A stretch of DNA of 40,094 nt from Deltaproteobacteria bacterium RIFOXYA12_FULL_61_11 (GTDB lineage Bacteria; Bdellovibrionota_F; JAHFAK01; YA12-FULL-61-11), in NCBI GenBank assembly GCA_001799195.1, contig MGSU01000150.1:1-40094 (forward strand). Direction: 5' to 3'. How positions within the stretch are numbered: position 1 is the first letter of the stretch; each line of letters begins with the position of its first letter. Position numbers and translations under genes: made by a program. Under the pieces are notes generated by a model. It had not been told where the DNA came from and searched no databases. It worked only from the letters and a program-made list of their open reading frames with translations. Below are positions 8,788 through 30,058 of this stretch, in pieces.

Positions 8788-10788
8788 TCAGAAGCGATAG
8801 CGCAACCGCAGCATGAAGGCCGAACCGTCGCTGGGGAGGGTGAGATCCTCGGCGTTGGCGAAGGCCGGTTCCCGATAGTCCCAATCGAGCAGGTTGGTCA
8901 CGAGCAGCGTACCTTCCAGACCCTCCAGGAAGAGTCGGTCGGCGAGGAGCGCAAGATTGACCAACATGACCCGCTCGGTCCGCCCGGCCAGGTCGCGCGT
9001 GAGGCGCGGAGCAAGATAGTGGACCTCGGGGGAGAGGTAATATCCCGCGAAGAGCGGCACACTCACGCTCGCGTTGGCCAGGAGCCATGGCGAGAAGGCG
9101 GGTTCTGCTCCGTCCTGGCGAAGTCTCAGCACGGTCACATTGGCCTGTCCCTGCCAAGCGGACGGGGCGCCCAGGTAGCGCAGCCCGGTCTCGCTGCCAT
9201 ACCCGGTGAAAAGCCCGCGATTGAGGTATTGCAGGACTTCCCGGTCTTCGTCGTAGGTGCCTACCACCTCCTGGGCGATCAGGTCCGAGGCGCGCAGGTG
9301 ATAGACGAGATCGTACAGGGTCCACGCCCCCACCCGGTGCTCGTAGCCGGCTTCGACCATGCGGATGCGCTCGGAGCGGAGGTCGCGGTTGGCCCGGTAG
9401 GCCCCGCCGTCGTCGAAGAAGGCCTCATACGACGTTGGATTACGAAAACCCTCGCCGAACATCAGCTTGAAGGTGCCACTTGAGTAGGGGGTGTACACCG
9501 CTGCCCCGCGAGGACTGACATTGTTCTCGAAGACGCTGTGACCGTCGAAACGGAGACCCAGGGTCAAGTGCAATTCGGGCAGCACGCTCAGCTCTTCCTG
9601 GAGGAAGGCGGTATACCGAGAGAAATCGTCTTCTTTGGCGATATCGACCAAGGCGAGGGTCGGGTCGTCTCCTCGGACCTCCCTACTCAGGTTCTCGGTG
9701 GCCAGGTATTCGCCTCCCAAGCCGAACACGGTACGGGAACGCCCCTCGAAGAAACTGAGCAACCCCTGGTACTCGGCACCGGGCCTGTCCCCGCGGTTCT
9801 CGTCGAGCCACAGCGGGTCCGGGCGGTAATCGAGTCTGTCCTCGAAGCGGAACCGGTCGTAATAGAGCCGCATGCTGTGCTCGTACCAGGCGCTGAGCTC
9901 CTGGCTATAGGAGAGGTCGAGCAAAACCTGCTGGTCGCGGTAGAGATTCTCGGTCGAACCGAAGTTCGTCTCATAGGGTGCGTGCGGCAAGCCTTTCTCG
10001 CGCATCGAGGTCAGGGCCAGGAAACGCCAGCCTCCCCAGCGCAGCGTGAGGTCGGCGGCGAGTTTGCGTTCGCGATCGGTCCGACTGGTCTTGCCGTCAT
10101 GGGCCGGGTAGGACTGCTTCTCGAAGGACTCGGGTTCCTCGAGGACAACGACCCCGGCCATGACCTCGCCCTGCTCTGCGAAGGCCGATCCCAGCGAGTA
10201 GGTTGCCTTGCCGCCGCGAAGGGGACGATATTCGGCCGAAGCCTCTCCCTCGAGGGAACGTTCGGGCCGGCGAGTGACCACATTGATCAAGGCATAGAAG
10301 GCGTTGGAACCATAAAGCGCCGAAGCAGGTCCGCGGACGATCTCGAGACGTTCGACGCGGGAGAGGTCGAGAGGAAACGTCTCGTCGAGGTGGACCGAGG
10401 CCCCGTTGGGTTCATTGACCGTGTGCCCGTCGATGGAGATCAACACCCTGGTGTTGAAGTCTTCACCCAGCGTCAAACCGCGGAACCCGAGGTAGTGGTA
10501 GTCCCGGCCGTCGGTGACGTGGAAGCCCGAGACCGAGCGCACGACATCGGAGAGGGTGCGATGGCCGTAGCGGCGGAGCTGTTCCGCAGTAAAGACGGTA
10601 ACGAAGGCGGGGGCCTCTCTCGTCGTCTGCGAATAGCGCGAGGCGGCGACGATGAGCTCTCCCGCAGTACGCAAGAACTCTTCTTCTCCGACCTTCTCGT
10701 CAAAGGGGTTCAGTTCCTCCGAGGCCCTCGTCTCCAACGCCGGTAACACAAGCGAGAGTCCCAGGACGAACAGCAGGCGATGGACCAT
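8788..10788 (-). CDS. TonB-dependent outer-membrane receptor
   Basis: The 666-residue protein has a signal peptide (RLLFVLGLSLVLPALETRA), then a plug domain (about residues 40-165): ELIVAASRYSQTTREAPA resembles a TonB-interacting start, followed by AEQLRRYGHRTLSDVVRSVSGF, LISIDGHTVN, ERLEIVRGPASALYGSNAF and INVVTRRP, all characteristic of TonB-dependent receptors. The rest is a 22-strand barrel-type region ending in LRLRYRF with the C-terminal aromatic. It resembles the vitamin/iron/catecholate group, but the substrate cannot be deduced. The preceding gene on this strand ends 9 bp upstream and encodes a periplasmic binding protein, so uptake of a shared ligand across both membranes is likely. 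No ABC permease or ATPase is in the window. Confidence 0.93.
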   Translation of the reverse strand: MVHRLLFVLGLSLVLPALETRASEELNPFDEKVGEEEFLRTAGELIVAASRYSQTTREAPAFVTVFTAEQLRRYGHRTLSDVVRSVSGFHVTDGRDYHYLGFRGLTLGEDFNTRVLISIDGHTVNEPNGASVHLDETFPLDLSRVERLEIVRGPASALYGSNAFYALINVVTRRPERSLEGEASAEYRPLRGGKATYSLGSAFAEQGEVMAGVVVLEEPESFEKQSYPAHDGKTSRTDRERKLAADLTLRWGGWRFLALTSMREKGLPHAPYETNFGSTENLYRDQQVLLDLSYSQELSAWYEHSMRLYYDRFRFEDRLDYRPDPLWLDENRGDRPGAEYQGLLSFFEGRSRTVFGLGGEYLATENLSREVRGDDPTLALVDIAKEDDFSRYTAFLQEELSVLPELHLTLGLRFDGHSVFENNVSPRGAAVYTPYSSGTFKLMFGEGFRNPTSYEAFFDDGGAYRANRDLRSERIRMVEAGYEHRVGAWTLYDLVYHLRASDLIAQEVVGTYDEDREVLQYLNRGLFTGYGSETGLRYLGAPSAWQGQANVTVLRLRQDGAEPAFSPWLLANASVSVPLFAGYYLSPEVHYLAPRLTRDLAGRTERVMLVNLALLADRLFLEGLEGTLLVTNLLDWDYREPAFANAEDLTLPSDGSAFMLRLRYRF

Positions 10789-10797
10789 TGGAGGACC

Positions 10798-11748
10798 TCA
10801 GTCGATGAGGGTGTCGGCCATCTGGAGCAGGGAGGGCGGCACGGCCAGACCGAGGCTGGCGGCGGTCCTGCGGTTGAACACCAGGGTCGTCCCGACCGGT
10901 GCGACCACGCGGGTTTCGGGTTCTCCCTGCGGCTTTGCTTGCTGGGATAGCAACTCGCCGGCCATGAGAGCCGCTTGCATGCCGATGGCACGGTAGTCCG
11001 GAGATATCGAGAGCAGGGCCCCTGCGCGTACGAATTCCTCTGAGAAGGCCATGAACGGGAGCTTCCGCTGAAGGCACTGCTGCTGGAGATGGGAAAAATT
11101 GGACGCGGTGTAGATGACCTGGTCGGGCAGCATCCAGAAGGCATCGATCTTGGGGGCGAGGGCGGCGAAGACCTTGGGCACCGCAGCGGCTTCCTCCACC
11201 GGGAGCGCCACCAGCTCCAGCCCGTATTCGGCAGCGACCCGGGCCGCCTCTTGCCGGCGGGGTTCATGGTGCTTCGGGTGGTAGAGTATGCCCAAGCGCT
11301 TGAGCCCGGGCACGGTCATCAGGAACTGGGCGAACATGCTCTGGATCGGAACGTCGAGGGAAATGCCCGAGACGTTCTTGCCGGACAGGCCGTAGTTGTG
11401 CCAGTTGATGACGTCCGCGAAGAGTACCGGAACCTCTCTCACCCGCCGAGCGGCAAGATAGGCCGCTTTGGCTCCAAGAGCCAGCACCAGGACCGGCTTC
11501 TGCTTCATCGCCTCGCTGAGTAGCTTCTCGCCGCGAGCCTGGTTGCCATCGAGCTCGAACTGCCGGAGGGTATAGGAACCGTGCCTCCGGAAGGCCTCGA
11601 TGGTCTCCTGGTAGGCCGGGACCTCGGCCGAGGTCAAGACCAGGATATCGCGGGGGAGCGCCGCGGCTGACCACCACGAGCAGAGCATCAGGATCCCCAG
11701 CCGGGTGGTCGTGGAACAGAGCATAGGTCCGTGTCTTCGCATTGCCAT
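10798..11748 (-). CDS. Periplasmic substrate-binding protein, ABC_sub_bind family
   Basis: The 316-residue protein begins with an export signal (LGILMLCSWWSAAALP) and matches the ABC_sub_bind family in order: DILVLTSAEVPAY, the helix LLSEAMKQKPVLVLALGAKAA, VPVLFADVINW, GISLDVPIQSMF, LKRLGILYHPKH and AFWMLPDQVIY, with FMAFSEEFVRAGALLSISPDY and a terminal NRRTAASLGLAVPPSLL. This family includes tryptophan-binding and other uncharacterised periplasmic proteins. It lies upstream of the TonB receptor in the same transcript (9-bp gap). CGGAGA precedes the ATG at 11748; a second ATG at 11742 is possible. As with the TonB receptor, no transport ATPase is seen here. Confidence 0.85.
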   Translation of the reverse strand: MAMRRHGPMLCSTTTRLGILMLCSWWSAAALPRDILVLTSAEVPAYQETIEAFRRHGSYTLRQFELDGNQARGEKLLSEAMKQKPVLVLALGAKAAYLAARRVREVPVLFADVINWHNYGLSGKNVSGISLDVPIQSMFAQFLMTVPGLKRLGILYHPKHHEPRRQEAARVAAEYGLELVALPVEEAAAVPKVFAALAPKIDAFWMLPDQVIYTASNFSHLQQQCLQRKLPFMAFSEEFVRAGALLSISPDYRAIGMQAALMAGELLSQQAKPQGEPETRVVAPVGTTLVFNRRTAASLGLAVPPSLLQMADTLID

Positions 11749-12020: not shown

Positions 12021-12827
12021 ATGGACCTCTCTCCCGCACAACTCGTCCTCGTCCTCAATGCGTGGCCGCCCGAACTCCTCCTGCTCCTCGAGCTGGTCTG
12101 CTGTTTCGGCGGGGTCTGCCTGATGGGCCGCCTCTTCGGCGCGGCCGGGTTGCAGGTCTACGTCTGTCTCGGCGTCATTGCCGCGAACCTGCAGGTACTC
12201 AAGGTAGTGAAATTCACCCTCTTCGAGCATCCGGTCGCGCTGGGCACGGTGGTGTTCGCCTCGACCTATCTGTGCACCGACATCCTGGCAGAATTCTATG
12301 GGCGTAAGGAAGCAAGCAAGGCAGTGTGGCTCGGCTTCGCCTCGCTCCTCGTCTTCGACCTCCTGATGCTCCTCACCCTCGGCTTCCGCCCACTGAGTCA
12401 GGCCGAAGCCCCCCCGGGACTCTCTTGGGCCCTGGGAGTCCACGATCACCTCGCCGCGCTGTTCCTCCCGGCACCGGCACTCCTCGTCGCAGGCATGACC
12501 GCGTACCTGTGCAGCCAACACCACGATGTCTGGCTCTACCAGGTCCTCCAGCGGATGACGGGTGGACGCCACCTGTGGTTGCGCAACAACCTCTCCACCA
12601 TGCTCTCGGCCCTGCTCGACAATACGATCTTCAGCGTCCTCGCTTGGGTCGTCCTGGCTCCCGAACCGGTCGGCGTCGACGCCCTGGTCTTCACCTACAT
12701 CCTCGGCACCTGGTACTTGCGCGTGCTGGTCGCCGCCCTCGACACTCCCTTCGTCTACCTGGCACGGTGGCTCTATAGTCGCCAGGCGACGGCCGGAGGA
12801 GCTCCCGAGGGAACGAGTCCCTGCTGA
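12021..12827 (+). CDS. yhhQ: Queuosine precursor transporter, YhhQ/VUT family
   Basis: The 268-residue, six- to seven-helix membrane protein matches the YhhQ/QPTR family (PF02592, formerly DUF165): early ANLQVLKVVKF, the conserved FASTYLCTDILAEFYGRKEASKAVWLGF block (loop and start of a helix), and the C-terminal half with WLRNNLSTMLSALLDNTIFSVLAW and YILGTWYLRVLVAALDTPFVYLARW. In E. coli YhhQ imports preQ0/preQ1, and homologues in salvage-type bacteria are proposed to import queuine or queuosine. The ribosome site is weak (no clear GGAG). No preQ1 riboswitch-like sequence is visible upstream. Because tgt, qng1 and a Q-mannosyltransferase lie elsewhere in the window, queuine or a Q derivative is a plausible substrate; this is inference. 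Confidence 0.92.
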   Translation: MDLSPAQLVLVLNAWPPELLLLLELVCCFGGVCLMGRLFGAAGLQVYVCLGVIAANLQVLKVVKFTLFEHPVALGTVVFASTYLCTDILAEFYGRKEASKAVWLGFASLLVFDLLMLLTLGFRPLSQAEAPPGLSWALGVHDHLAALFLPAPALLVAGMTAYLCSQHHDVWLYQVLQRMTGGRHLWLRNNLSTMLSALLDNTIFSVLAWVVLAPEPVGVDALVFTYILGTWYLRVLVAALDTPFVYLARWLYSRQATAGGAPEGTSPC

Positions 12828-17890: not shown

Positions 17891-19117
17891 ATGCATCGCT
17901 TGTTCCCTCTCCTGACCATTGCCCTGCTCGGCTGCATGAGCGAGTATGAACTCCAGGTCGACGAGCAGGCCAAGCAGCAGGACCTCGCTACGGCCATGCA
18001 CGACGACGCCATCGACCGGAGCGGCCCGGTGGCGGGGCTCTTCCCCCCCCTGCAACTGCCGCCACCCGGGACCTCCTGGTTCCCTCCCGAGCAGCCCGGC
18101 GCGATCCGGCCGACCCTCGGCAGCGGCCAGGCCTCGCCGGGAAACGTCCCCGTTACTTCGACCGGGTCGGAGACCGCCATCGTTCCGGCCACCGTGCCCA
18201 CTCCCGACCTGCCCACCGGTATCGAGCAAGGTTGCCCAGCCCTTCCCCAAGACCTGCTCATCGTGGATCTGAAGTCCGGCTGGTGGTCAGGCGACGGCGG
18301 TGAATTCTTCGAGCACATCCTCTCCGGCATCGGCGATCCTTGTCTCGGCAGAATCACCATCGACTACCATCACGTGACCAACGCCTACCACGCTACCCTT
18401 CGCACCGGGGGTTCGAGCGGCAGTTCCGAGTTGCGCTTCTACGAAGGCGAGCCGCGCTTCGGCAAGGTCTTCGGGGCCACGGATTGGGATACCTACGAAC
18501 AGATCTGGATCCTCTCGGGGTCCGAGGCCGATCCTCTCGATCTGCCCGTCCAGGGCGACTTCTTCCAAAAACTCGCCCAACACCTCGTCGCCTCGGACGC
18601 GGCCGTGTTCCTCGGTGCGGGTTTCGGCTCGATCACCCACAGCAATGCCCTCGCCGAAGCCTTGGACCTCGGGACGATCTTCGACACGAGAGAGAGGGAG
18701 GGAGGCTTACTCTCACCTCAGTTGGGAGGCGTGGAGGTTGTGGATTATCTTGAACTCGTCGCGCAACACCCGATGTTCCAAGAGGTCACCTCGGTGGTCG
18801 AACGGGTCCGCATGGCCGGGGGAATGATCGAGCTAGAGGCCAATCCCTCCAATGGGTTCGAGGGCTTCCTGAACGGCCTGATGGCTCCGCCCAGGGTCGT
18901 GGCCGGCAGCGACCGGATCATCAACGGCAGGGATTTCGAGGCACTCGCGAAGAACGCGACAGGCGATACGGTCATCGCGGTCGGGAAAGCCTCGTTGGCC
19001 CGCCGCATCGTCCTCGACTCGGGTTTACAACGCTTCTACGCGGTGGCCGGGCAAAACGGCGCGGGCACGCTGGCCTATCTGCGCAACATGGTGCTCTATC
19101 TCTCCGGGGTTCGCTGA
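17891..19117 (+). CDS. Lipoprotein of unknown function
   Basis: The 408-residue product has a lipoprotein signal (LFPLLTIALLGC, lipobox ALLGC). A Pro/Ser/Gly-rich linker of roughly 90 residues follows, then a globular domain from about residue 120 with LLIVDLKSGWWSGDGGEF, FLGAGFGSITHSNAL and ALAKNATGDTVIAVG. The alternation of hydrophobic strands with glycine turns is of an alpha/beta type, and no family is recognised. The start is supported by GAGGTGATCGATG. It converges with and overlaps the Q-mannosyltransferase gene by 22 bp. The 208-bp gap upstream holds an AT-rich stretch (TTATTTAACAGATTG) that may contain its promoter. Confidence 0.65.
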   Translation: MHRLFPLLTIALLGCMSEYELQVDEQAKQQDLATAMHDDAIDRSGPVAGLFPPLQLPPPGTSWFPPEQPGAIRPTLGSGQASPGNVPVTSTGSETAIVPATVPTPDLPTGIEQGCPALPQDLLIVDLKSGWWSGDGGEFFEHILSGIGDPCLGRITIDYHHVTNAYHATLRTGGSSGSSELRFYEGEPRFGKVFGATDWDTYEQIWILSGSEADPLDLPVQGDFFQKLAQHLVASDAAVFLGAGFGSITHSNALAEALDLGTIFDTREREGGLLSPQLGGVEVVDYLELVAQHPMFQEVTSVVERVRMAGGMIELEANPSNGFEGFLNGLMAPPRVVAGSDRIINGRDFEALAKNATGDTVIAVGKASLARRIVLDSGLQRFYAVAGQNGAGTLAYLRNMVLYLSGVR

Positions 19118-20250
19118 ACTCGAGGAGCCGCAGAGGTCAGGTCGTCGACCAACCGATCGTAGTCCGTCGCCAGCCTCGGCCAGGCATACTTGCCCATGGC
19201 CTCGCTGAGTCTCCCGGTCACGTCGGCCTCCGGACCTCGCTCCACGAGCGCTGCCAGTCGTTCGACAAAAGCCCCCTCGGGATACAGCACCGCCTCGTGC
19301 AGCTCCGGCGGCACGAGCTCCGGATACACCAGCCGCCTCGGCAGGAGGGGATGGCAGCCGGCGGCGAGCGCCTCGACGACGCTCAGCCCGAAGAAGTCCT
19401 GTCGCGAGGTCACGGGCAGGATATCGCTCTGGTGCAACAAGGTCAGGTAGGCCTCGCGCGGCAGCGGACCGAAGGCCACCAGCCTCTCTCCGAGTAGGTC
19501 CTGGGCCCGGTCGAAGGGGGTTGCACATTCTCCTCTGCGCTCCCCGGCGAGGGCAACGCGGAAGCGCAGGCCGCGACGCACGAGTTCGACCAGGGCGGAG
19601 AAGAACTCCTCGGGTCCCTTGTCGTGCTCCCAGCGATGGTTCCAGAGGAGCAGGGGTCCCTCGGGATGGGGGACCCTCCGGGTCGCAAGGACAGTCAAAC
19701 GGGCATACTCCACGCCCACGGGCAATACAGCGCAGCGAGGCGGCAACCCTCGCAGCTCTGCAAGCCCGCGGTGATCCGGCAACCGTCGCAAGAGCGTCTC
19801 CATACCCTCGAAGAAGCTGTCGCGGTTGTAGGCCGAGTTGAAGGCAACGCGATCGGCGGCCAACGCGGTGGTGAAATTGCGAAAAGCATAGCCCGCAGCG
19901 TCGGCGTCCCCCTCGGCCCCTCTCCTGCTCGAAACCGGGTAGGCGCACTGGTTCTCGTGGAAATAGGCCAGAACCGGCACCTTGGGCCAAGCACGGACAA
20001 GGCCGAGGAAGGTCGCGAGGTCGAGCAGGTCGCTCGCCACGAGCAGGTCCGGCGGTGCTCCTCTTCGCGCCAATCCGGCCAGCGTCACCGCCGCCCCGTG
20101 CATGCGCCACTTCCAGTGCCGGGCGGACAACCCGAGGACCTCGATCCTATGCCTGCTCGCGCCGCGCCAACCCTCGGCCCAAGCCGCATGGGCACCTCCG
20201 AGCCAGGGCTCGAGCAACAAAATCCTCCGGCTGTCCTCCCCCTCGCTCAT
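19096..20250 (-). CDS. tRNA-queuosine alpha-mannosyltransferase family protein (QTMAN/GTDC1-like)
   Basis: The 384-residue glycosyltransferase matches the family known from human QTMAN (GTDC1), which transfers mannose from GDP-mannose to the cyclopentenediol of queuosine in tRNA-Asp. The opening LEPWLGGAHAAW, the segment HWKWRMHG, SDLLDLATF, YFHENQCAYPV, FNSAYNRDSFF and PDHRG all align by eye with the family's N-terminal DUF3524 domain. The C-terminal half is GT4-like, with LWNHRWEHDKGP and SRQDFFGLSVVEALAAG, the donor-binding region. The ATG at 20250 was chosen over a much longer open frame because it starts the conserved domain and overlaps the GH38 stop by 4 bp (ATGA). It should act in the cytosol on charged or uncharged tRNA. 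Specificity for Q over another acceptor is inferred from family and context. Confidence 0.85.
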   Translation of the reverse strand: MSEGEDSRRILLLEPWLGGAHAAWAEGWRGASRHRIEVLGLSARHWKWRMHGAAVTLAGLARRGAPPDLLVASDLLDLATFLGLVRAWPKVPVLAYFHENQCAYPVSSRRGAEGDADAAGYAFRNFTTALAADRVAFNSAYNRDSFFEGMETLLRRLPDHRGLAELRGLPPRCAVLPVGVEYARLTVLATRRVPHPEGPLLLWNHRWEHDKGPEEFFSALVELVRRGLRFRVALAGERRGECATPFDRAQDLLGERLVAFGPLPREAYLTLLHQSDILPVTSRQDFFGLSVVEALAAGCHPLLPRRLVYPELVPPELHEAVLYPEGAFVERLAALVERGPEADVTGRLSEAMGKYAWPRLATDYDRLVDDLTSAAPRVQRTPER

Positions 20251-23200
20251 GCGCTGAAAGTACAGTGTACGGTCTTCACCTCGAAGGGCCGGAGACCGAT
20301 CCGGAGGCTTTGCGGCGTCACCAGGGAGACCGTAGAGCCCTGGCGTGGCCGTTCCAAGAGGTCGACCTCCGCTGCCGAACCGAGCGGTAGGCCGCATCGG
20401 AGCGACGCCTCGACGGTGCGGCCGTGGCATTCCCACATACGCACGATGATACCCTCTCCCTGTTCCGGCTTCTTCACCGTCTCGACGCAGAGATGCGGGC
20501 AGTCGGTGGAGAACAGCGCCGGCGGAACGGTAGCGTGCCCCCCCCCCGAGCCCGCAGGAATCCGTTCGACCAACGGCGGGTGGGCCAGCTCGTAAGCCCG
20601 GCGAACCACCTCGCCCTGGACCAGGTCGCCCTGGTGGGGCAGCAGGGCGTAGGTGAAACGGTGCCGCCCGAGGTCTGCGCTCTGGTCGGGTATACGTGGG
20701 CTGCGTAACAGGGCCAGGTCGAGCACGCCGTCCTCCAGGCGGTGTCCGTACTTGCCGTCGTTGAGCAGAGCGAGGCCGAGTTCCGGGGTCGAGCAGTCCA
20801 CCCAGCGCTGCGCCGGGACTTCGAACCTGGCCCACTCCCACGAGGTGTTGGTGTGGCCGGGCCGCTGCAGGTGGCCGAACTGGATCGAGGCATGGAAGAT
20901 GCCGTGCCGCAAGGCGGACGGGAAGGAGACGCGCAGCATGCGGTGCTCCTCGCGCCACTCCACCAGGGTGACGAAGTCCAGTCGCGGGCTGTTCGCACCG
21001 AGTCGGACCTCCTGGACCACCTCGGACCTGCCGATGGCCAGACGCTGTTCCAGGGCGATGCGCAGGGGCCCCTTTTCGAGCACGCGGCGCGACACGAGGC
21101 GCGGCCGCTCCGGCGGCCGGTCCAAATAGAAGCGGTCGACCTCCCAGGCGTCGTAGACGTTGGGCCGGTCCTCATACAGGGCCAAGGCATTGCCGCCGAG
21201 CCCCGGGGCGAGCAGCTCGCGGCCGCTGCCGCGCTCCACGAGGCTGGTCAACTCACCGTGTTCACCGAAGCGGGCGCACAGCAAGGAGTTCTCGAGCAGG
21301 TCGGGTCCTACGGTCAGGTGTGGATCAGGCTCGAAGGGTCGCGGCGTCAGAGGCTCCACGGTCTGGGCAGGCAGCCCCACCACAACGAGCAGGTCACCGC
21401 GCTCCGGTTCGACCGCGCTTTCCGGCAGGCGCTGGCCAGCACCCGCGGCGGTCCAGGTCTGGGTCTGTTCCGGAGGCACGCTCACGGCCAGGAGTTCGCG
21501 TCGGTCCCAGGCCAGGGGGTTGTAGACGACCAGACAGGGTTCAACCCCTGAGGTCGAACTCGTACCGACCGCCTCGAGGCCCTCGGTTGCCAGCCGTTCC
21601 AGCGAGGACAGAGTCTCCCGGTGGGCCGCCTCGGCCTCCTCATAGACCCGGCGGATCGAAGAACCGGGCAGGATGTCGTGGAACTGGTGGAACAGGATGG
21701 TACGCCACGCCTGGTCGAGTTCCCGGCTCGGATAGGGCAGACCTACCACCTGTTCGGCCAGGAGGCGCAGACCCTCGACCGAGCGGGCAAGGGTCTCGGC
21801 GGCGAGGTTGTCGGCCTTGGTGCGGGCTTGCGTGGTCAAGACCCCGCGGTGCATCTCGAGGTACAGTTCGCCGCTCCACAGAGGCAGTTCGGCGCGGTGC
21901 TGAGCCAAACGGCCGAGCATGGCCTCGGCTCCACCCAGGGAGAGGCGCGGCAAGCCCTCGGTCGAGGCGGCGCGCAGGGCCCGTTCGAGCTCCAGGCGAT
22001 CCGGTCCGCCGCCGCCGTCGCCCAGGCCGAACAGGACCAGGGCCTCGTCGAGCAGGGCCTTCTGCCGATAGTTGCGCTCGGCGAAACGCAGGTCGGCCGG
22101 ACGGTTCTCGCCGTTGTAGTTCTCCTCGGGCGTGCAGTGCGCCAGCACCTCGGAGCCGTCCAGCCCGCGCCAACGGAAGGTGTGGTGGGGGAAAACATTG
22201 ACCTGCGACCAGCTCAGCTTGTTGGTGAGGAAATGTTCCACCCCGGCGAGCACGAGGAGCTGCGGCAGCGCGGCCGAGAAGCCGAAGGTGTCGGGCAACC
22301 ATAGCGTCGTCGCCTCGCGGCCGAAGCGCTCCCGGAAGCAGCGTTTGCCGTAGAGGAGTTGGCGGCACAGCGATTCGCCGCCGACGAGATTCGTGTCCAT
22401 CTCCACGTAGGTGCAGCCCTGCAGCTCCCAGCGGCCTTCCTGCACGGCCCGGTGTACCCGGGCGTAGAGGTCGGGCCGCAGCTCGGCCAGTCGGTCGTAG
22501 AGCCAGGTCTGGCTCATGCCGAAACGGTGCTCGGGGTACCGCTCGAGCAGGCTGAGCTGGGTGCTGACCGTGCGCACGAGCTTCCGTTCGGTCTCCCGCA
22601 CCGGCCAGAGCCAGGCAAGATCGAGGTGAGCGTGCCCGACCGCGGTCAAGCGCAGCGTGGTCGGCACGGCCGGCTTGGCAAGCTCGGCGGCCAGCGCTAT
22701 GCGGGCCGCGGCGACTTCGTCGGTTCTCAGCTCGCCGGCCAGACCGGCGGCCCGGACCAGGGCCGCACGGACGGTCGAACGCTTCAGGCTGTCCCAGGGA
22801 AGGTCGAGCATCAGGTCGCGCAGGAACTCCAGGTCGCAGTAGAGCTGGAACACATCCTCGCGCCAGGCGCCCAGTTCGCAGCGCAATACGCGGCCGAGGC
22901 GGGGGTCGTCCCAGTCCGGCTCCTCGGGCGGGGCGATCGGGTTGGCTCCGGTCTCGCACAGCAGGGTGATCGTGCCGTCAAGGGCGAAAAGACCGCGGAG
23001 CGGTAGCACGTCGCGCAACGAGACGCGCCGGTCCGGAATGCGGATTTCGGTGGTCAGCCCCTGCAACGGCCGACCGTCCGCGGTCAAGACCAGGGTCTCA
23101 CCGCCCAGGTCGAGGCGCAGGGCCGGGTCACGGCTGCGCTGCTGCTCCGGAACTATAGCGGTCAAGCGGAAGACGGCGCAGTCCCACTTCCCACCCCAGC

Positions 23201-23399
23201 GTTGCCCGCGGACGAAAGGAACGAGCGGCTCGCCGAGGGCCTCGAACAGGGGTCGCGGCTCGGCCGAGACCGTCCCCTCCAGCACGGCCTCGCCCCACGG
23301 CTCGAAGCGGTGCTCCCAGCAGCGGTCGAGCAGACGATCGATACGTACTTCCTGTTGCCGGTCGAAGGCCCCGGTCACGTCCTTGGTCGGTTTGCTCAT
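20247..23399 (-). CDS. GH38 alpha-mannosidase, cytosolic Ams1/MAN2C1 type
   Basis: The 1050-residue protein lacks a signal peptide. The catalytic domain has HAHLDLAWLWPVRET (zinc ligands His258 and Asp260), the nucleophile motif WLPDTFGFS (Asp370) with NKLSW after it, and HQFHDILPGSS for a further zinc His. An N-terminal beta domain and a long C-terminal sandwich give the length usual for the cytosolic Ams1/MAN2C1 class, which remove alpha-linked mannose. The ATG at 23399 was chosen over an upstream GTG/ATG because AGGAGCGGGG precedes it and the extra 20 residues would be encoded by a repeat that also occurs at 24518-24578. Its TGA overlaps the Q-mannosyltransferase ATG, so the two products should be made in fixed ratio. 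The natural substrate is not known; mannosyl-queuosine is a hypothesis. Confidence 0.9.
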   Translation of the reverse strand: MSKPTKDVTGAFDRQQEVRIDRLLDRCWEHRFEPWGEAVLEGTVSAEPRPLFEALGEPLVPFVRGQRWGGKWDCAVFRLTAIVPEQQRSRDPALRLDLGGETLVLTADGRPLQGLTTEIRIPDRRVSLRDVLPLRGLFALDGTITLLCETGANPIAPPEEPDWDDPRLGRVLRCELGAWREDVFQLYCDLEFLRDLMLDLPWDSLKRSTVRAALVRAAGLAGELRTDEVAAARIALAAELAKPAVPTTLRLTAVGHAHLDLAWLWPVRETERKLVRTVSTQLSLLERYPEHRFGMSQTWLYDRLAELRPDLYARVHRAVQEGRWELQGCTYVEMDTNLVGGESLCRQLLYGKRCFRERFGREATTLWLPDTFGFSAALPQLLVLAGVEHFLTNKLSWSQVNVFPHHTFRWRGLDGSEVLAHCTPEENYNGENRPADLRFAERNYRQKALLDEALVLFGLGDGGGGPDRLELERALRAASTEGLPRLSLGGAEAMLGRLAQHRAELPLWSGELYLEMHRGVLTTQARTKADNLAAETLARSVEGLRLLAEQVVGLPYPSRELDQAWRTILFHQFHDILPGSSIRRVYEEAEAAHRETLSSLERLATEGLEAVGTSSTSGVEPCLVVYNPLAWDRRELLAVSVPPEQTQTWTAAGAGQRLPESAVEPERGDLLVVVGLPAQTVEPLTPRPFEPDPHLTVGPDLLENSLLCARFGEHGELTSLVERGSGRELLAPGLGGNALALYEDRPNVYDAWEVDRFYLDRPPERPRLVSRRVLEKGPLRIALEQRLAIGRSEVVQEVRLGANSPRLDFVTLVEWREEHRMLRVSFPSALRHGIFHASIQFGHLQRPGHTNTSWEWARFEVPAQRWVDCSTPELGLALLNDGKYGHRLEDGVLDLALLRSPRIPDQSADLGRHRFTYALLPHQGDLVQGEVVRRAYELAHPPLVERIPAGSGGGHATVPPALFSTDCPHLCVETVKKPEQGEGIIVRMWECHGRTVEASLRCGLPLGSAAEVDLLERPRQGSTVSLVTPQSLRIGLRPFEVKTVHCTFSA

Positions 23400-23417: not shown

Positions 23418-23478
23418 CCACGGACCTGTGATGTAGCAAAGAGCAAGGGGGAAGGGCAATCACTCGTTACCGCTGCGG
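23418..23478. repeat. 61-bp direct repeat, copy A
   Basis: This segment and 24518-24578 share 61 bp with one mismatch (C versus T at 23444/24544). The similarity extends with gaps to a GCCCCGCTCCTGT block that, on the minus strand, is the AGGAGCGGGG ribosome site of the GH38 gene. The copy probably covers the promoter and leader of the mannosidase gene: on the minus strand TTGCCC and TACATC are separated by 18 bp and could be -35/-10 boxes (weak). Confidence 0.85.
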
Positions 23479-24517: not shown

Positions 24518-24578
24518 CCACGGACCTGTGATGTAGCAAAGAGTAAGGGGGAAGGGCAATCACTCGTTACCGCTGCGG
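24518..24578. repeat. 61-bp direct repeat, copy B
   Basis: This copy is identical to 23418-23478 except for one base. The pair is 1.1 kb apart and encloses the toxin-antitoxin genes and the short remnant. The arrangement could have arisen by duplication of the mannosidase leader when the module inserted, or by recombination between leaders of two genes. Confidence 0.85.
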
Positions 24579-25338: not shown

Positions 25339-26658
25339 TCAGCGTTTCCCATGTTCCAACCGCAGTTCGAGCTGCAAATAGCGCTCGCGGAGAGCCTCGA
25401 CCTTGGCAGGGTCTGCACCCTCAACCCCGACCGTTCCCTTGGGGAGCCAGGCATAGGGTCTGTCCGCGAAGGCCTGGTAGTAGACCCTCAACCGCTCCTC
25501 CACCCAGGCCGGGGACCCGGGGGTGAGACCGAGTAAGGCCGCGAAGGTTTCATAGAGCAGGGAGGCGACCAGGTAATTGCCGGCTTCGCTCAGATAGGGG
25601 ATGGAGCGCAACAGGACCTCGCGTTCCACCTGGAACGCGGGAAACCTGCGGGACAAATCCTCGAACAGATCCACCACCTCATACTCGCCGCGTATATAGC
25701 GATGGAAGATCCGGTTGAGCTGCACGGGAAGCAACACGACGAGGAACGTACCGCCCCGGGCTTCGACGTCGTTCCTCCACACCGTGAGCACGGCGTTGAA
25801 CACGGCCACGGCGTGAAGAAGCTCTCGGTTCTCACGCTCTTCGGTGTGGAAGCCCTGGAAGATCGAGCGATCGCGATCATCGCTCGTCCTTTTCTGTTGG
25901 GCGGTGACGAGCTCGCGTTCCTGCCGCTCCTTCCAGCGGGCGAGGCTCTCGAAACCTCCGAGCCGCTCGAGCACGAAATACGTCAGGTGCAGCCGCGAGA
26001 GGAGGCTCAGCCACCACGGCACCAGGTCCGCGGTCAGGCTCACCAGGGAACCGTCCTCGGCGAGGTCATAGAGTCCCGTTTCGTAAATGTTATTGATGTC
26101 ATTGAAACAAAAGAAATAGACCACCACGTCGAGGTGATCGCGCAAGGGCGTGGCGAGGTACGTACGATAGCTTTGGTCCACACCATAGCTCGAGACCCCG
26201 AAGTTGAGGACCTCGAACCGAGCCGCGGAGGCGTTGAGCAGGTACTCGAGCGGCAGGGGGAAGAGATAGGGGGAGGGCAGGCCGAGCTGGGCGAGATACG
26301 AGTCCCCAAACAGGCCGATCCTCGTGGAAGGTTCCAACCGGTCGAGAGCGAGGTCCCGGGGGTGGCGCAGACCGAGGTTATTGGTGATCAGGGGGAACGG
26401 ACGGGAAGAGTCGGCGTGCTCGAGGTATTGGACCGTGTTCGGCATCGGCCGCCAGAGGCGGAAAGGATCCGCGGTGGTGAAGGTCTCCGCGGCGTTCCGG
26501 TAGCGTGTCGTCGACCATCGCACCGCCCCTTCGGCGAGGAACACCGCCACGAGGAGGGACACCCCGGCAAGGGCCAGGTCGAGGCTTCTTCCGAGGAGGG
26601 ATGTGCGGTCGCGCCGAGGTAGCATGGCATCGAGCCGTGAGCCTGAGCTCGTGGTCAT
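25339..26658 (-). CDS. SGNH-hydrolase-like protein lacking the canonical Asp-His end
   Basis: The protein of about 439 residues (from ATG at 26658) has an N-terminal anchor (LDLALAGVSLLVAVFLAEGA) and SGNH blocks FGDSYLAQ (Ser), NFGVSSYGVDQ (Gly) and FFCFNDINN (Asn). The position of block V reads LRSIPYLSEAGNYLVA, where DxxH is expected before 'LxxxGN', so the catalytic Asp and His appear replaced. It may be inactive, use another base, or act as a binding protein. Three start codons upstream were considered; the 26658 start gives the shortest N-region before the anchor. It is a paralogue in fold of the gene at 15733 but not closely similar. Confidence 0.7.
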   Translation of the reverse strand: MTTSSGSRLDAMLPRRDRTSLLGRSLDLALAGVSLLVAVFLAEGAVRWSTTRYRNAAETFTTADPFRLWRPMPNTVQYLEHADSSRPFPLITNNLGLRHPRDLALDRLEPSTRIGLFGDSYLAQLGLPSPYLFPLPLEYLLNASAARFEVLNFGVSSYGVDQSYRTYLATPLRDHLDVVVYFFCFNDINNIYETGLYDLAEDGSLVSLTADLVPWWLSLLSRLHLTYFVLERLGGFESLARWKERQERELVTAQQKRTSDDRDRSIFQGFHTEERENRELLHAVAVFNAVLTVWRNDVEARGGTFLVVLLPVQLNRIFHRYIRGEYEVVDLFEDLSRRFPAFQVEREVLLRSIPYLSEAGNYLVASLLYETFAALLGLTPGSPAWVEERLRVYYQAFADRPYAWLPKGTVGVEGADPAKVEALRERYLQLELRLEHGKR

Positions 26659-26981
26659 CGTCCCAGGATACCAGACCAACCTGGTTTGGCCGAGAAGGAA
26701 CTATCAACAGCACGGTCGCGGTGCTGAGTACAAGAAGAGGTGCCGCGATTGAACAAGATCCAACGTGGTTCCAGACCATGTTGTTTCGAGCTAGCGTTTT
26801 GGAGGGGCGCAGAAAGAACCGCGCAGGAAGATTTCAGGGGGTCTACGCTAGTAATGGAGAAGGATTGACACCAGATGCAGCATATAACACATTGAATAAA
26901 CACGGATTAATTTGGTCTATTATATGCAACTTCCATGGAAGACTGGGGTTTATTGTACTTCTTCATGATCGGAGATTCGTC
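26659..26981. other. AT-rich non-coding gap
   Basis: About 320 bp between the SGNH-like gene and the repeat protein, with a sharp drop in GC content after about 26,880 (for example AACACATTGAATAAAC). It presumably holds the promoter of the repeat-protein gene, but no clear -35/-10 pair or other feature is seen. Confidence 0.5.
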
Positions 26982-27806
26982 ATGAAAAACATGGTGGCAA
27001 TGCTTCTTCTTCCATTACTGGCCTTCAGTATACCTCTCTATGCACAAGATCCAACTTCCGTGCCTGACGATGAAACGCAACTGCTTACGTGGCCCAAACA
27101 TTTGTCTTCAGGATTACCATTCAGCATTGACAGCAATGAAGATGGGGTCTGTGTCGCCCTTGGGTATGAAAGAGCTGCGGCTGGAAGTAGCCGCACGGAT
27201 GGCTTTCTCTACAACACGATACTGGTTGATACTGATGGTATTGTGGTCGGAGGACCATCAGCAAAAGCTATTTCCCAGATGGTATGTGTCAACTTTCTCG
27301 GCATCTCCATAAAGGAAAAGAGTGTGCTGCTAAGGAAACCAGTACACCAGGGTTCGAATCTACCGTTCAGCACCAACAGCAATGAAGACGGTGTTTGTGT
27401 GGCCTTAGGATACGAACGAGCGGCGGCTAACAGTAGCCGTACGGATGGTTTTCGGTATAATACCATACTCGTTGATGATGAAGGTTTGGTCATCGGAGGG
27501 CCAGTATCGAAAGCCATTTCGCAAATTGTCTGCATGAACTCCAGCGACAAAGTACAGCAAAAAGAAAAAAGCACTTTGGTGGTGAGGCCCAAGCACGATG
27601 CCTCCCGTTTACCGTTCAGTACCGCCAGTGACGAACATGGTATTTGTATTGCGCTTGGCTTTGAAAAAGCGGCCCAGGGCAGTAGTAGGACGGACGGATA
27701 CCGGTACGATACCATCCAAGTTGATACTACGGGAAAAGTTGTTGGCGGACCAAGGAGTACAGCGGTTGGCCAAATCGTATGTTTGCAAGATAATTGCGAA
27801 GAATAA
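26982..27806 (+). CDS. Exported three-repeat protein with paired cysteines
   Basis: The 274-residue product has a signal peptide (MVAMLLLPLLAFSIPLYAQ) and three tandem repeats at about residues 38-103, 120-185 and 203-268. Each contains LPFS, GVCVALGYERAA, SSRTDG, YNTILVD, GGP, and IVC. Each repeat has two Cys exactly 45 residues apart (57/102, 139/184, 222/267), which suggests one intra-repeat disulfide each. No known family is recognised. GGAG at 26971-26974 supports this start over a longer upstream frame. Base composition from about 26700 to 27830 is far more AT-rich than the neighbours, so the gene is probably acquired. Confidence 0.75.
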   Translation: MKNMVAMLLLPLLAFSIPLYAQDPTSVPDDETQLLTWPKHLSSGLPFSIDSNEDGVCVALGYERAAAGSSRTDGFLYNTILVDTDGIVVGGPSAKAISQMVCVNFLGISIKEKSVLLRKPVHQGSNLPFSTNSNEDGVCVALGYERAAANSSRTDGFRYNTILVDDEGLVIGGPVSKAISQIVCMNSSDKVQQKEKSTLVVRPKHDASRLPFSTASDEHGICIALGFEKAAQGSSRTDGYRYDTIQVDTTGKVVGGPRSTAVGQIVCLQDNCEE

Positions 27807-27944: not shown

Positions 27945-29093
27945 ATGATCTCCTTCCGCGTGACCGCGCGTTCCAGCCGCTCCGCCGCCCGCCTGGGCGT
28001 GCTCTCGACCCCGCACGGCGATATCGAGACCCCGGCCTTCGTACCCGTGGCCACGCGCGCCGCGGTCAAGGCCATCTCGCTGCAACAAGCCGCCGAGGCT
28101 GGCTGCCAACTGCTGATCTGCAACACCTTCCATTTGCACCTGACTCCCGGCGAGGACCTCGTCGCCGCGGCCGGCGGCCTGCACTCCTTCATGGGCTGGC
28201 AGCGGCCGCTGATGACCGACAGCGGCGGGTACCAGGTCTTCAGCCTCGGTTTCGGCAGGGACCACGACGTGGGGAAACTCCGCGGCGTGTTCCCCGGCAA
28301 GGAGCAGCAGGCCACCATCAAACCCGGGTCTCAGCCGAACCACGTGAAGATCACCGACGACGGAGTGTGGTTCCGCTCGCCGCGCGACGGCAGCAAGCAT
28401 TTCCTCGGTCCGGCTGAGAGCCTGGCCATGCAGCGCAAACTCGGGGCCGACATCGTCTTCGCCTTCGACGAGTGTACCGCGCCGCTGACCACCCCGGCCT
28501 ATCTCGAACTCTCGCTGCGCCGCACCCATGCCTGGGCCGAACGTTGTCTCGAACTGCACGACGGAGAGCAGGCCCTCTACGGCATCGTCCAGGGTTCCCA
28601 CTATCGCGAGCTGCGGCAGCATAGCGCCCGCTTCATCGGCGGCCTGCCCTTCGCCGGTTTCGGCATCGGTGGGGACCTCGGTCAGGACAAGCAGGACATG
28701 CACCAGGTGCTGGAATGGACGGTCCCGCTCTTGCCCGAAGAGCGACCGCGCCACCTCTTGGGTATCGGCCATCCCGAGGACTTCGACGAGATCGTCCGCC
28801 GCGGCGTGGACACCTTCGACTGCATCGTTCCCACCCTGCACGCCAGGCACGGCATCGCGTTCACCGCCGAGGGCCGGCTCAACCTGCGCAACCGGCGGTT
28901 CCTCACCGACCCGGCTCCGCTCGACCCGGCCTGCTCCTGCCCAACGTGCCGGTATGCCAGCCGTCGCTACCTCGCCCACCTGGTCCGGCTGGAGGAGATC
29001 GGAGCCATGGCCGCCCTTACCGTCCATAATCTCCACTACTGCAACCGTCTGGCCGCATCGCTGCGCGAGGCCATCGCAAAGGGAAGCCTATGA
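27945..29093 (+). CDS. tgt: tRNA-guanine transglycosylase, non-canonical base pocket
   Basis: The 382-residue enzyme exchanges guanine-34 of tRNAs with GUN anticodons for preQ1 (bacteria) or queuine (eukaryotes and some bacteria). TGT features are clear: MTDSGGYQVF (Asp92), FAFDECTAP (Asp175), YGIVQG (Gln216), nucleophile Asp292 in FDCIVPT, and zinc ligands Cys330, Cys332, Cys335 and His361 (CSCPTC...VHN). Two features are unusual. There is an insertion of about 25 residues after the FSL motif (103-130), and the base-contacting loop reads GGDLG (242-246) where canonical bacterial enzymes have GGLAVGE. The FDECT-type sequence places it in a clade containing TGTs thought to use queuine. The 4-bp overlap with qng1 supports a queuine-using role. 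The ribosome site is only GAG at the right spacing. Confidence 0.93.
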   Translation: MISFRVTARSSRSAARLGVLSTPHGDIETPAFVPVATRAAVKAISLQQAAEAGCQLLICNTFHLHLTPGEDLVAAAGGLHSFMGWQRPLMTDSGGYQVFSLGFGRDHDVGKLRGVFPGKEQQATIKPGSQPNHVKITDDGVWFRSPRDGSKHFLGPAESLAMQRKLGADIVFAFDECTAPLTTPAYLELSLRRTHAWAERCLELHDGEQALYGIVQGSHYRELRQHSARFIGGLPFAGFGIGGDLGQDKQDMHQVLEWTVPLLPEERPRHLLGIGHPEDFDEIVRRGVDTFDCIVPTLHARHGIAFTAEGRLNLRNRRFLTDPAPLDPACSCPTCRYASRRYLAHLVRLEEIGAMAALTVHNLHYCNRLAASLREAIAKGSL

Positions 29094-30058
29094 CCAACAA
29101 CCCGGTCCTCACCTCCACGCTCCCCGTCGTCGAGGCCGCGGTCCACGTCACCCTCCAGCGCAAGGCCCTCACTTCCTTGGCCCTCCGTTGGTTGCGGGAG
29201 CAGAAACTTCCCCCGCCCTGGCCGGACGAGCACCACCTCGGACCTGCCGACGCCGAGACCACGGCCCGCTATATCCTGCTGCTCGACACGCTCAACTTCT
29301 GCTTCTGGCCCCTGCCGGGCACGTGCAAGTGGACCGTCGCCACGCCGCAAGGGAACCTCGGCGGGTACTTCGGCCTCAGCCAGGCCCTGGCCCGCTGGTT
29401 CCGTGAACGGCCGGAGAGGACGACCGCAAAGGCCCTCGCCAACGTGCCCGAGGAGGAATTCGAGGCGGTCCTCGCCGGCGAGGGGAGCTTGCAGTTCTTG
29501 CCCGAGCGCCGGGCCTTCACGCGAGCCCTGGGCGACGTTCTGGTTGAGCGGTACGGCGGCAGCGCCCTGCGCTTGCTTGCCGCGGCCAAGGGCAGCACCG
29601 CGAAGCTCGTCGAACTGGTCGTGGCCGAGCTTCCCGGCTTCGACGACAGGGCGAGGTATGCCGGAGAGGTCGTGCTCCTGCGCAAGCGAGCCCAGATCCT
29701 CTGCGCCGATCTCCACGGCGCTTTCCACGGGACCGGTCCCGGTCGCTTCGACGACCTCGCTTACCTCACCGCCTTTGCCGACTACAAGCTGCCCCAACTC
29801 CTCGAACGCATCGGGGTACTGCGCTACTCGCCCGAGCTGCGGGCAAGCCTCGCCGCTGAGCAACTCCTGCCTGCGGGGTCTGCCCTGGAAGTCGAACTGC
29901 GCGCGGCCACGGTCTGGGCTGTGGAGTTGCTGCGCCGGGAACTCGAGGCCCGCGGTCGGGCCTTCCTACCCCTGGAACTCGACTGGATTCTGTGGAACGA
30001 CGCCAAGCTGCTGCCACCCGGCCTGCCGTACCACCGCACCCCGACCGTGTTCTACTGA
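29090..30058 (+). CDS. qng1: Queuosine-5'-phosphate N-glycosylase (queuosine salvage protein, DUF2419)
   Basis: The 322-residue protein shows the whole motif set of the Q-salvage family (PF10343), which hydrolyses queuosine-5'-phosphate to queuine and ribose-5-phosphate. Motifs are LDTLNFCFWP (65-74), WTV and GGYFGLSQAL (81-100), RKRAQILCADL (198-208), LTAFADYKLPQLL (226-238), EVELRA (267-272), DWILWNDAK (298-306) and PYHRTPTVFY at the C-terminus. It is full length with no signal. Its ATG overlaps the TGT stop by 4 bp, so free queuine may be passed directly to tRNA insertion. This protein is common in eukaryotes and rarer in bacteria. Its presence is the strongest evidence for Q salvage rather than de novo synthesis. 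Confidence 0.93.
   Translation: MTNNPVLTSTLPVVEAAVHVTLQRKALTSLALRWLREQKLPPPWPDEHHLGPADAETTARYILLLDTLNFCFWPLPGTCKWTVATPQGNLGGYFGLSQALARWFRERPERTTAKALANVPEEEFEAVLAGEGSLQFLPERRAFTRALGDVLVERYGGSALRLLAAAKGSTAKLVELVVAELPGFDDRARYAGEVVLLRKRAQILCADLHGAFHGTGPGRFDDLAYLTAFADYKLPQLLERIGVLRYSPELRASLAAEQLLPAGSALEVELRAATVWAVELLRRELEARGRAFLPLELDWILWNDAKLLPPGLPYHRTPTVFY

What the first reader, a model, noticed from the sequence alone, without database searches (positions are those of the whole stretch)
27945..30058. tgt-qng1 overlapping pair: a bacterial queuine salvage operon
Seen: tgt and qng1 overlap by 4 bp, with all Qng1 motifs intact. Known: Qng1 releases queuine from queuosine-5'-phosphate; canonical bacterial TGT inserts preQ1, not queuine. 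Inference: this TGT uses queuine supplied by Qng1, so the organism recycles Q from turned-over or scavenged tRNA.
Basis: partly seen in the sequence, partly recalled or inferred. Interest (0 to 1): 0.8.

Follow-up and report, generated by a model that had tools for sequence, protein, structure and literature searches.

The report
Queuine salvage genes in a bacterium
This bacterium seems unable to make the tRNA vitamin queuine and instead recovers it with a two-gene salvage unit, an arrangement already known from other bacteria; the same stretch of DNA also carries a relative of the animal enzyme that adds mannose to the finished tRNA base, which is the part worth testing.

Summary
In detail: tgt (27945-29093) and qng1 (29090-30058) overlap by ATGA and are intact. 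The pair is not rare: in 47 of 80 Qng1 loci tgt lies beside qng1 on the same strand. The interpretation survives its own test: in the window's genome (87% complete) QueA, QueC, QueD, QueF, QueG and QueH are not found and this tgt is the only one; the only class mate held has all but QueH, and a canonical TGT. The window TGT belongs to a distinct clade with a one-residue-shorter substrate loop (GG-DLG, not GGLSVGE) and a long insertion. Of 48 Qng1 genomes, the 25 without QueA have only this type, while 18 of the 23 with QueA have a canonical TGT. Best reading: a queuine-inserting TGT fed by Qng1, a new member of a known kind. New here: the same 40 kb holds the genome's only queuosine-precursor transporter and its only homologue of QTMAN, the animal enzyme that mannosylates queuosine in tRNA-Asp; this gene overlaps an alpha-mannosidase gene by 4 bp. 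QTMAN is in 25 of 386 genomes, 23 with QueA; the other two have the short-loop TGT. Mannosyl-queuosine in bacteria is untested.

The parts
27945..29093 (+). tgt: tRNA-guanine transglycosylase of the short-loop (queuine-type) clade, 382 aa
28668..28682 (+). substrate loop GGDLG (residues 242-246), one residue shorter than GGLSVG of canonical TGTs
28248..28340 (+). clade-specific insertion after DSGGYQVFSL (about residues 102-132; low model confidence at 111-121)
29090..29093 (+). ATGA overlap of the tgt stop and the qng1 start
29090..30058 (+). qng1: queuosine-5'-phosphate N-glycosylase (Q_salvage, DUF2419), 322 aa
12021..12827 (+). QPTR (YhhQ-family) queuosine precursor transporter, the only one found in the genome
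   Evidence: TIGR00697 159.8 bits, cut-off 50.95
19096..20250 (-). homologue of QTMAN, tRNA-queuosine alpha-mannosyltransferase, the only one found in the genome; the link to queuosine here is inferred
   Evidence: (QTMAN_N 174.5 bits, cut-off 25)
20247..23399 (-). GH38 alpha-mannosidase (Ams1-like), whose stop overlaps the QTMAN start by ATGA (20247-20250); role in queuosine metabolism is speculative

Best explanation
tgt-qng1 is a direct queuine salvage module. Qng1 hydrolyses queuosine-5'-phosphate (from tRNA turnover or scavenged RNA) to free queuine. The TGT, whose substrate loop is shortened so that the queuine-blocking valine is gone, inserts queuine directly at G34 of tRNAs with GUN anticodons. 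The organism lacks the preQ1 route and probably also imports queuine through the QPTR on the same contig. Shown: gene identities, overlap, single copies, synthesis genes not found, loop type, clade. Inferred: substrate preference, flux, import substrate.
For: QueA, QueC, QueD, QueF, QueG, QueH not found in the own genome, one TGT only, one Qng1, one QPTR. The only class mate G001 has QueA, QueC, QueD, QueF, a QueG-like match and a canonical TGT, and no Qng1. 45 of 46 TGTs read beside qng1 have the short loop, the other was unreadable. Of 48 Qng1 genomes examined, 25 of 25 without QueA have only short-loop TGTs; 18 of 23 with QueA have a canonical TGT, 10 of them alongside a short one (Fisher p 4.6e-9, no correction for kinship). 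Short and canonical TGTs separate at one branch even with loop and insert removed (SH-aLRT 97). Valine in the loop is reported to clash with queuine (PMC10723273, section 6 read); PDB 4hqv is titled a Zymomonas TGT Y106F, C158V, V233G mutant with queuine.
Against: No kinetics. The genome is 87% complete; QueE, QueK and QueL were not searched. The loop letters (GGDLG) are not the GG[LS][AS]G published for queuine-using TGTs, only the length agrees. 5 of 23 QueA-positive Qng1 genomes show only short-loop TGTs (G117, with QueA, QueC, QueF and QueG, is the clearest), which would fit a short-loop TGT that accepts preQ1, or missing contigs. 6 of 48 Qng1 genomes have only a canonical TGT, so Qng1 alone does not imply the queuine type. 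Bartonella shows that a genome with TGT and QPTR alone can use preQ1 (PMC10723273, abstract). No queuine-using TGT of proven specificity (Chlamydia, human) could be placed in the tree.
Confidence: 0.85

Rival explanations
1. Bartonella-like case: the TGT still uses preQ1 (or preQ0) imported by the QPTR, tRNAs end with preQ1, and Qng1 serves something else, for instance breakdown of queuosine for carbon or nitrogen.
For: Precedent in Bartonella henselae (PMC10723273, abstract and passages). QPTR of other bacteria carries preQ1/preQ0 (PMC11130926, sections 6 and 7). Five QueA-positive genomes with only short-loop TGTs.
Against: Bartonella TGT has the GGLAVG loop, this one does not. The short loop goes with absence of QueA. 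The overlap with qng1 points to queuine as the shared metabolite.
Confidence: 0.08
2. The missing que genes are an artefact of an incomplete draft genome; the organism makes queuosine de novo and tgt-qng1 only recycles it or is a second TGT, as in 10 other genomes with both types.
For: 342 contigs, 87% complete. Ten of 48 Qng1 genomes have both TGT types.
Against: Six families all missing at once plus a missing canonical TGT; in the class mate G001 the five that are present lie on five different contigs, so one lost region would not explain it. At 13% missing each, losing all seven independently is about 6e-7 (my arithmetic).
Confidence: 0.07
3. The QTMAN homologue is an ordinary glycosyltransferase (with the mannosidase, part of a glycan or solute pathway) and its place near the queuosine genes is chance.
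For: It also matches general GT4 models weakly. It sits beside an alpha-mannosidase, not beside tgt. 25 of 26 other QTMAN loci show no GH38 in the fetched flank and 25 of 26 show no QueA, QueF or QueG by tblastn, so neither linkage is a family trait. QueA is widespread, so its co-occurrence is weak evidence. One QTMAN genome, G420, showed no TGT.
Against: Strong match to the QTMAN N-terminal domain, 174.5 bits against a cut-off of 25, with the motifs of 26 homologues kept. QPTR, QTMAN and tgt-qng1, each single in the genome, lie within 18 kb of 4.64 Mb. 23 of 25 QTMAN genomes have QueA and the other two a short-loop TGT. In G026 QTMAN lies within 7 kb of queF and queG.
Confidence: 0.5

Closest known systems
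Direct queuine salvage of Chlamydia trachomatis (queuine-specific bTGT plus QPTR)
   Same: TGT without QueA and QueG/QueH, QPTR importer, changed TGT pocket (as described in PMC10723273, passages read)
Bacterial Qng1 (DUF2419), such as the solved 7u07/7uk3 proteins
   Same: Whole-length match, 45% identity over the aligned rows
   Different: Solved work concerns the enzyme alone; here it is paired with a short-loop TGT, as in 47 of 80 loci
tgt-qng1 pairs of Patescibacteria (L005, L006, L034, L046, L048, L071)
   Same: Same gene order; TGT in one clade (99) and Qng1 in one group (93) with the window; 4-bp overlaps in L034 and L048
   Different: Small-genome hosts; the window's host has a 4.64 Mb genome and also QPTR and QTMAN
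Animal QTMAN, tRNA-queuosine alpha-mannosyltransferase (GTDC1)
   Same: QTMAN_N domain plus glycosyltransferase domain
   Different: Bacterial; no activity on tRNA has been tested as far as my searches showed; coupled to a GH38 gene

Membership tests
Bacterial-type TGT (Q_tRNA_tgt) | Score over the equivalog cut-off | tested here: met
   422.5 against 306.75 bits; AlphaFold model pLDDT 89.7, Z 49 to Zymomonas TGT entries, rmsd 1.3, 351 residues
Bacterial-type TGT (Q_tRNA_tgt) | Catalytic Asp and four Zn ligands | tested here: met
   D292, C330, C332, C335, H361 invariant in 23 rows; roles recalled
preQ1-inserting TGT | GGLAVG/GGLSVG substrate loop | tested here: not met
   GG-DLG, one residue shorter
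Queuine-inserting TGT | GG[LS][AS]G loop without the valine, as published | tested here: inconclusive
   Length fits, letters differ (GGDLG, PMC10723273 section 6)
Queuine-inserting TGT | Uses queuine in base exchange | not testable with these tools
   needs an enzyme assay
Qng1 (Q_salvage) | Full-length family match and conserved active-site blocks | tested here: met
   243.6 bits; E 2e-76 to solved Qng1; blocks kept
Queuine salvage without de novo synthesis | No QueA, QueC, QueD, QueF, QueG, QueH | tested here: met
   none over its cut-off in an 87% complete genome; QueE not searched
QPTR | Equivalog match | tested here: met
   TIGR00697 159.8 bits, cut-off 50.95; substrate untested
QTMAN | QTMAN N-terminal domain over its cut-off | tested here: met
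   174.5 bits, cut-off 25
QTMAN | Transfers mannose to queuosine of tRNA-Asp | not testable with these tools
   needs tRNA mass spectrometry

The most novel reading that the evidence does not exclude
This bacterium runs an animal-style queuosine economy: it imports or recycles queuine (QPTR, Qng1, queuine-type TGT) and then mannosylates the queuosine of tRNA-Asp with a bacterial QTMAN, while the translationally coupled GH38 alpha-mannosidase strips mannose from mannosyl-queuosine nucleotides of degraded tRNA so that Qng1 can release clean queuine. Mannosyl-queuosine would then be a bacterial modification as well, in about one in fifteen of the genomes searched (25 of 386).
Probability: 0.3. 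Interest if true: 0.8.

Novelty: new member of a known kind. Interest (0 to 1): 0.5.

Why it matters
A one-residue loop deletion together with an insertion marks the TGTs that go with Qng1 and with absence of QueA, so likely queuine users can be read from sequence in uncultured bacteria; ten genomes carry both TGT types and are a natural control. The QTMAN homologues, if active on tRNA, would extend sugar-modified queuosine to bacteria, where its purpose, still unknown in animals, could be tested genetically.

Tried and rejected
Rfam found no RNA family in the window at gathering thresholds, so no preQ1 riboswitch; ARAGORN found no tRNA. Binning error: rejected, composition fits. GH38-QTMAN as a general pairing: rejected, 1 of 26 other QTMAN loci has GH38 in the fetched flank, about 5 kb away and on the other strand (L157). 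QTMAN, QPTR or GH38 as usual neighbours of qng1: none found around 80 Qng1 loci by tblastn with the window proteins at E 1e-5 (many loci are short). Qng1 or QTMAN on plasmids: no match. The structure model confirms the fold but no coordinates are given, so the pocket could not be measured; human QTRT1 was not among the 50 rows shown. A promoter-like site at 27766-27794 (found as two overlapping hits) was not used. The published papers on Qng1 structure and on Chlamydia queuine salvage are not held; I know them only from the reference list and text of held papers and from recall.

Full report
Observation. tgt and qng1 are at the stated coordinates, intact, on the + strand, sharing ATGA at 29090-29093. 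TGT scores 422.5 bits against the Q_tRNA_tgt equivalog, Qng1 243.6 bits against Q_salvage, and Qng1's best solved match has E 2e-76. Each is the only copy found in a 4.64 Mb, 342-contig, 87% complete genome.

How common the pair is. A scan of the genome-contig collection with a three-row Qng1 alignment gave 250 relatives, of which the best 80 were kept. 48 of 80 loci show a TGT match in the held flank and 47 could be paired on one strand: 40 in the order qng1-tgt, 7 in the order tgt-qng1 as here, with short overlaps frequent in both orders. Many loci end at contig edges, so this is a lower bound. Neighbourhoods of bTGT and Qng1 have been surveyed before (PMC11130926, sections 6 and 7 read). 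The pair itself is therefore ordinary.

Synthesis genes. In the window's genome QueA, QueD, QueF, QueG and QueH gave no match, and QueC one match of 20.2 bits under its cut-off of 22. The same searches rang in 9, 9, 8, 9, 2 and 12 of 14 control genomes (QueA, QueD, QueF, QueG, QueH, QueC), so they work. The only class mate held, G001 (96% complete), has QueA (239.8 bits, cut at a contig end), QueC, QueD, QueF, a QueG-like match of 169 bits (cut-off 200) and a canonical TGT, but no Qng1, QTMAN or QPTR.

The TGT is of another type. In the canonical TGTs read here the substrate loop is GGLSVGE or close to it; in the window it is GG-DLG. 45 of 46 TGTs of 200 aa or more beside qng1 have the short loop, and the other (L050) could not be read. 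Over all TGTs collected, 64 rows are short, 43 canonical, 2 other (the rows include the window twice, four further duplicate loci and Zymomonas). All 64 short rows also have a longer stretch after the DSGG motif, 36-69 aa against 15-16. With insert and loop removed, 57 short and 40 canonical rows separate at one branch, SH-aLRT 97 (quick search; 12 rows dropped as duplicates, near copies, broken or odd).

Genome test. In 48 Qng1 genomes (48 of the 80 loci, chosen for spread), 25 lack a QueA match and all 25 have only short-loop TGTs; of 23 with QueA, 18 have a canonical TGT, 10 of these together with a short one, and 5 have only short ones (QueA, TGT). Fisher p is 4.6e-9, without correction for kinship. 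The genomes are mostly drafts, so single absences are weak. The five QueA-positive genomes with only the short type, and six Qng1 genomes with only a canonical TGT, do not fit a strict rule; one of the 48 is labelled an archaeon (L044). PMC10723273 (abstract, passages and section 6 read) states that queuine-salvaging bTGTs typically carry GG[LS][AS]G instead of GGLAVG and that the valine would clash with queuine; PDB 4hqv is titled a Zymomonas TGT Y106F, C158V, V233G mutant with queuine. The window loop has that length but not those letters, so the published motif is not strictly met.

Origin. The window TGT sits with Patescibacteria TGTs (99) and its Qng1 falls in the matching group (93, not starred, long branch); the gene order agrees. 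The class mate's canonical TGT lies elsewhere in the tree. Horizontal exchange of the pair is likely; its direction is unknown. GC and third-position GC of the pair match the neighbouring genes, so any transfer is not recent.

Surroundings. The same contig carries the genome's only QPTR (12021-12827; TIGR00697 159.8 bits) and its only QTMAN homologue (19096-20250; QTMAN_N 174.5 bits). Three single-copy units of this kind within 18 kb of 4.64 Mb would be unlikely by chance (about 3e-5 by my own post hoc arithmetic, uncorrected for what else I might have noticed). QTMAN starts inside the stop of a GH38 alpha-mannosidase gene (ATGA), whose closest solved relatives are Ams1 proteins.

QTMAN in bacteria. 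25 of 386 genomes have it over the cut-off; 23 of those 25 have QueA, and the two without (the own genome and G249) each have a short-loop TGT as their only TGT. G117 and G129, the other two QTMAN genomes among the 50, have QueA. One QTMAN genome, G420, showed no TGT. In G026 QTMAN lies within 7 kb of queF and queG; in the other 25 QTMAN loci tblastn with one QueA, QueF and QueG found none in the flank. QueA is common in bacteria, so the co-occurrence is consistent with a queuosine role but does not prove it. Searches for QTMAN, DUF3524, mannosyl-queuosine, and queuosine with mannosyltransferase or alpha-mannosidase (listings, plus passages of PMC12313893 and PMC12518689) showed QTMAN discussed for animals and other eukaryotes; I saw no report of it in bacteria, within that library only.

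Verdict. The salvage pair is a new member of a known kind. The part worth following is the QTMAN homologue with its mannosidase partner.

Noticed in passing
window 19096-23399 (-): QTMAN homologue whose start overlaps the stop of a GH38 alpha-mannosidase gene by ATGA; both lie 5-9 kb from tgt-qng1.
   Followed up: partly
L044 10001-12143: A contig labelled Woesearchaeota archaeon carries qng1 and a bacterial-type short-loop TGT side by side, and its genome shows no QueA; queuine salvage in an archaeon, or a mixed bin.
   Followed up: partly
L196 (G249): A QTMAN-bearing genome without QueA whose only TGT has the short loop; no Qng1 was found on the two TGT-contig pieces or on the QTMAN contig piece, the rest of the genome was not searched for Qng1.
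   Followed up: partly
L008, L009, L014, L047, L059, L076: Six Qng1 genomes (G101, G102, G107, G129, G137, G143) have QueA and only a canonical TGT; how the released queuine is used there is unclear.
   Followed up: no
window 23418-23478 and 24518-24578: 61-nt direct repeat, 98% identical, 1100 bases apart, around an ORF with a sub-cut-off PIN match.
   Followed up: no
window 27115-27789: Three direct copies of a 180-nt unit, spaced 246 and 249 bases, inside the ORF 26505-27806 just upstream of tgt; no Pfam family.
   Followed up: no
window 8788-11748 (-): TonB-dependent receptor beside an ABC substrate-binding protein; a possible uptake route, substrate unknown.
   Followed up: no
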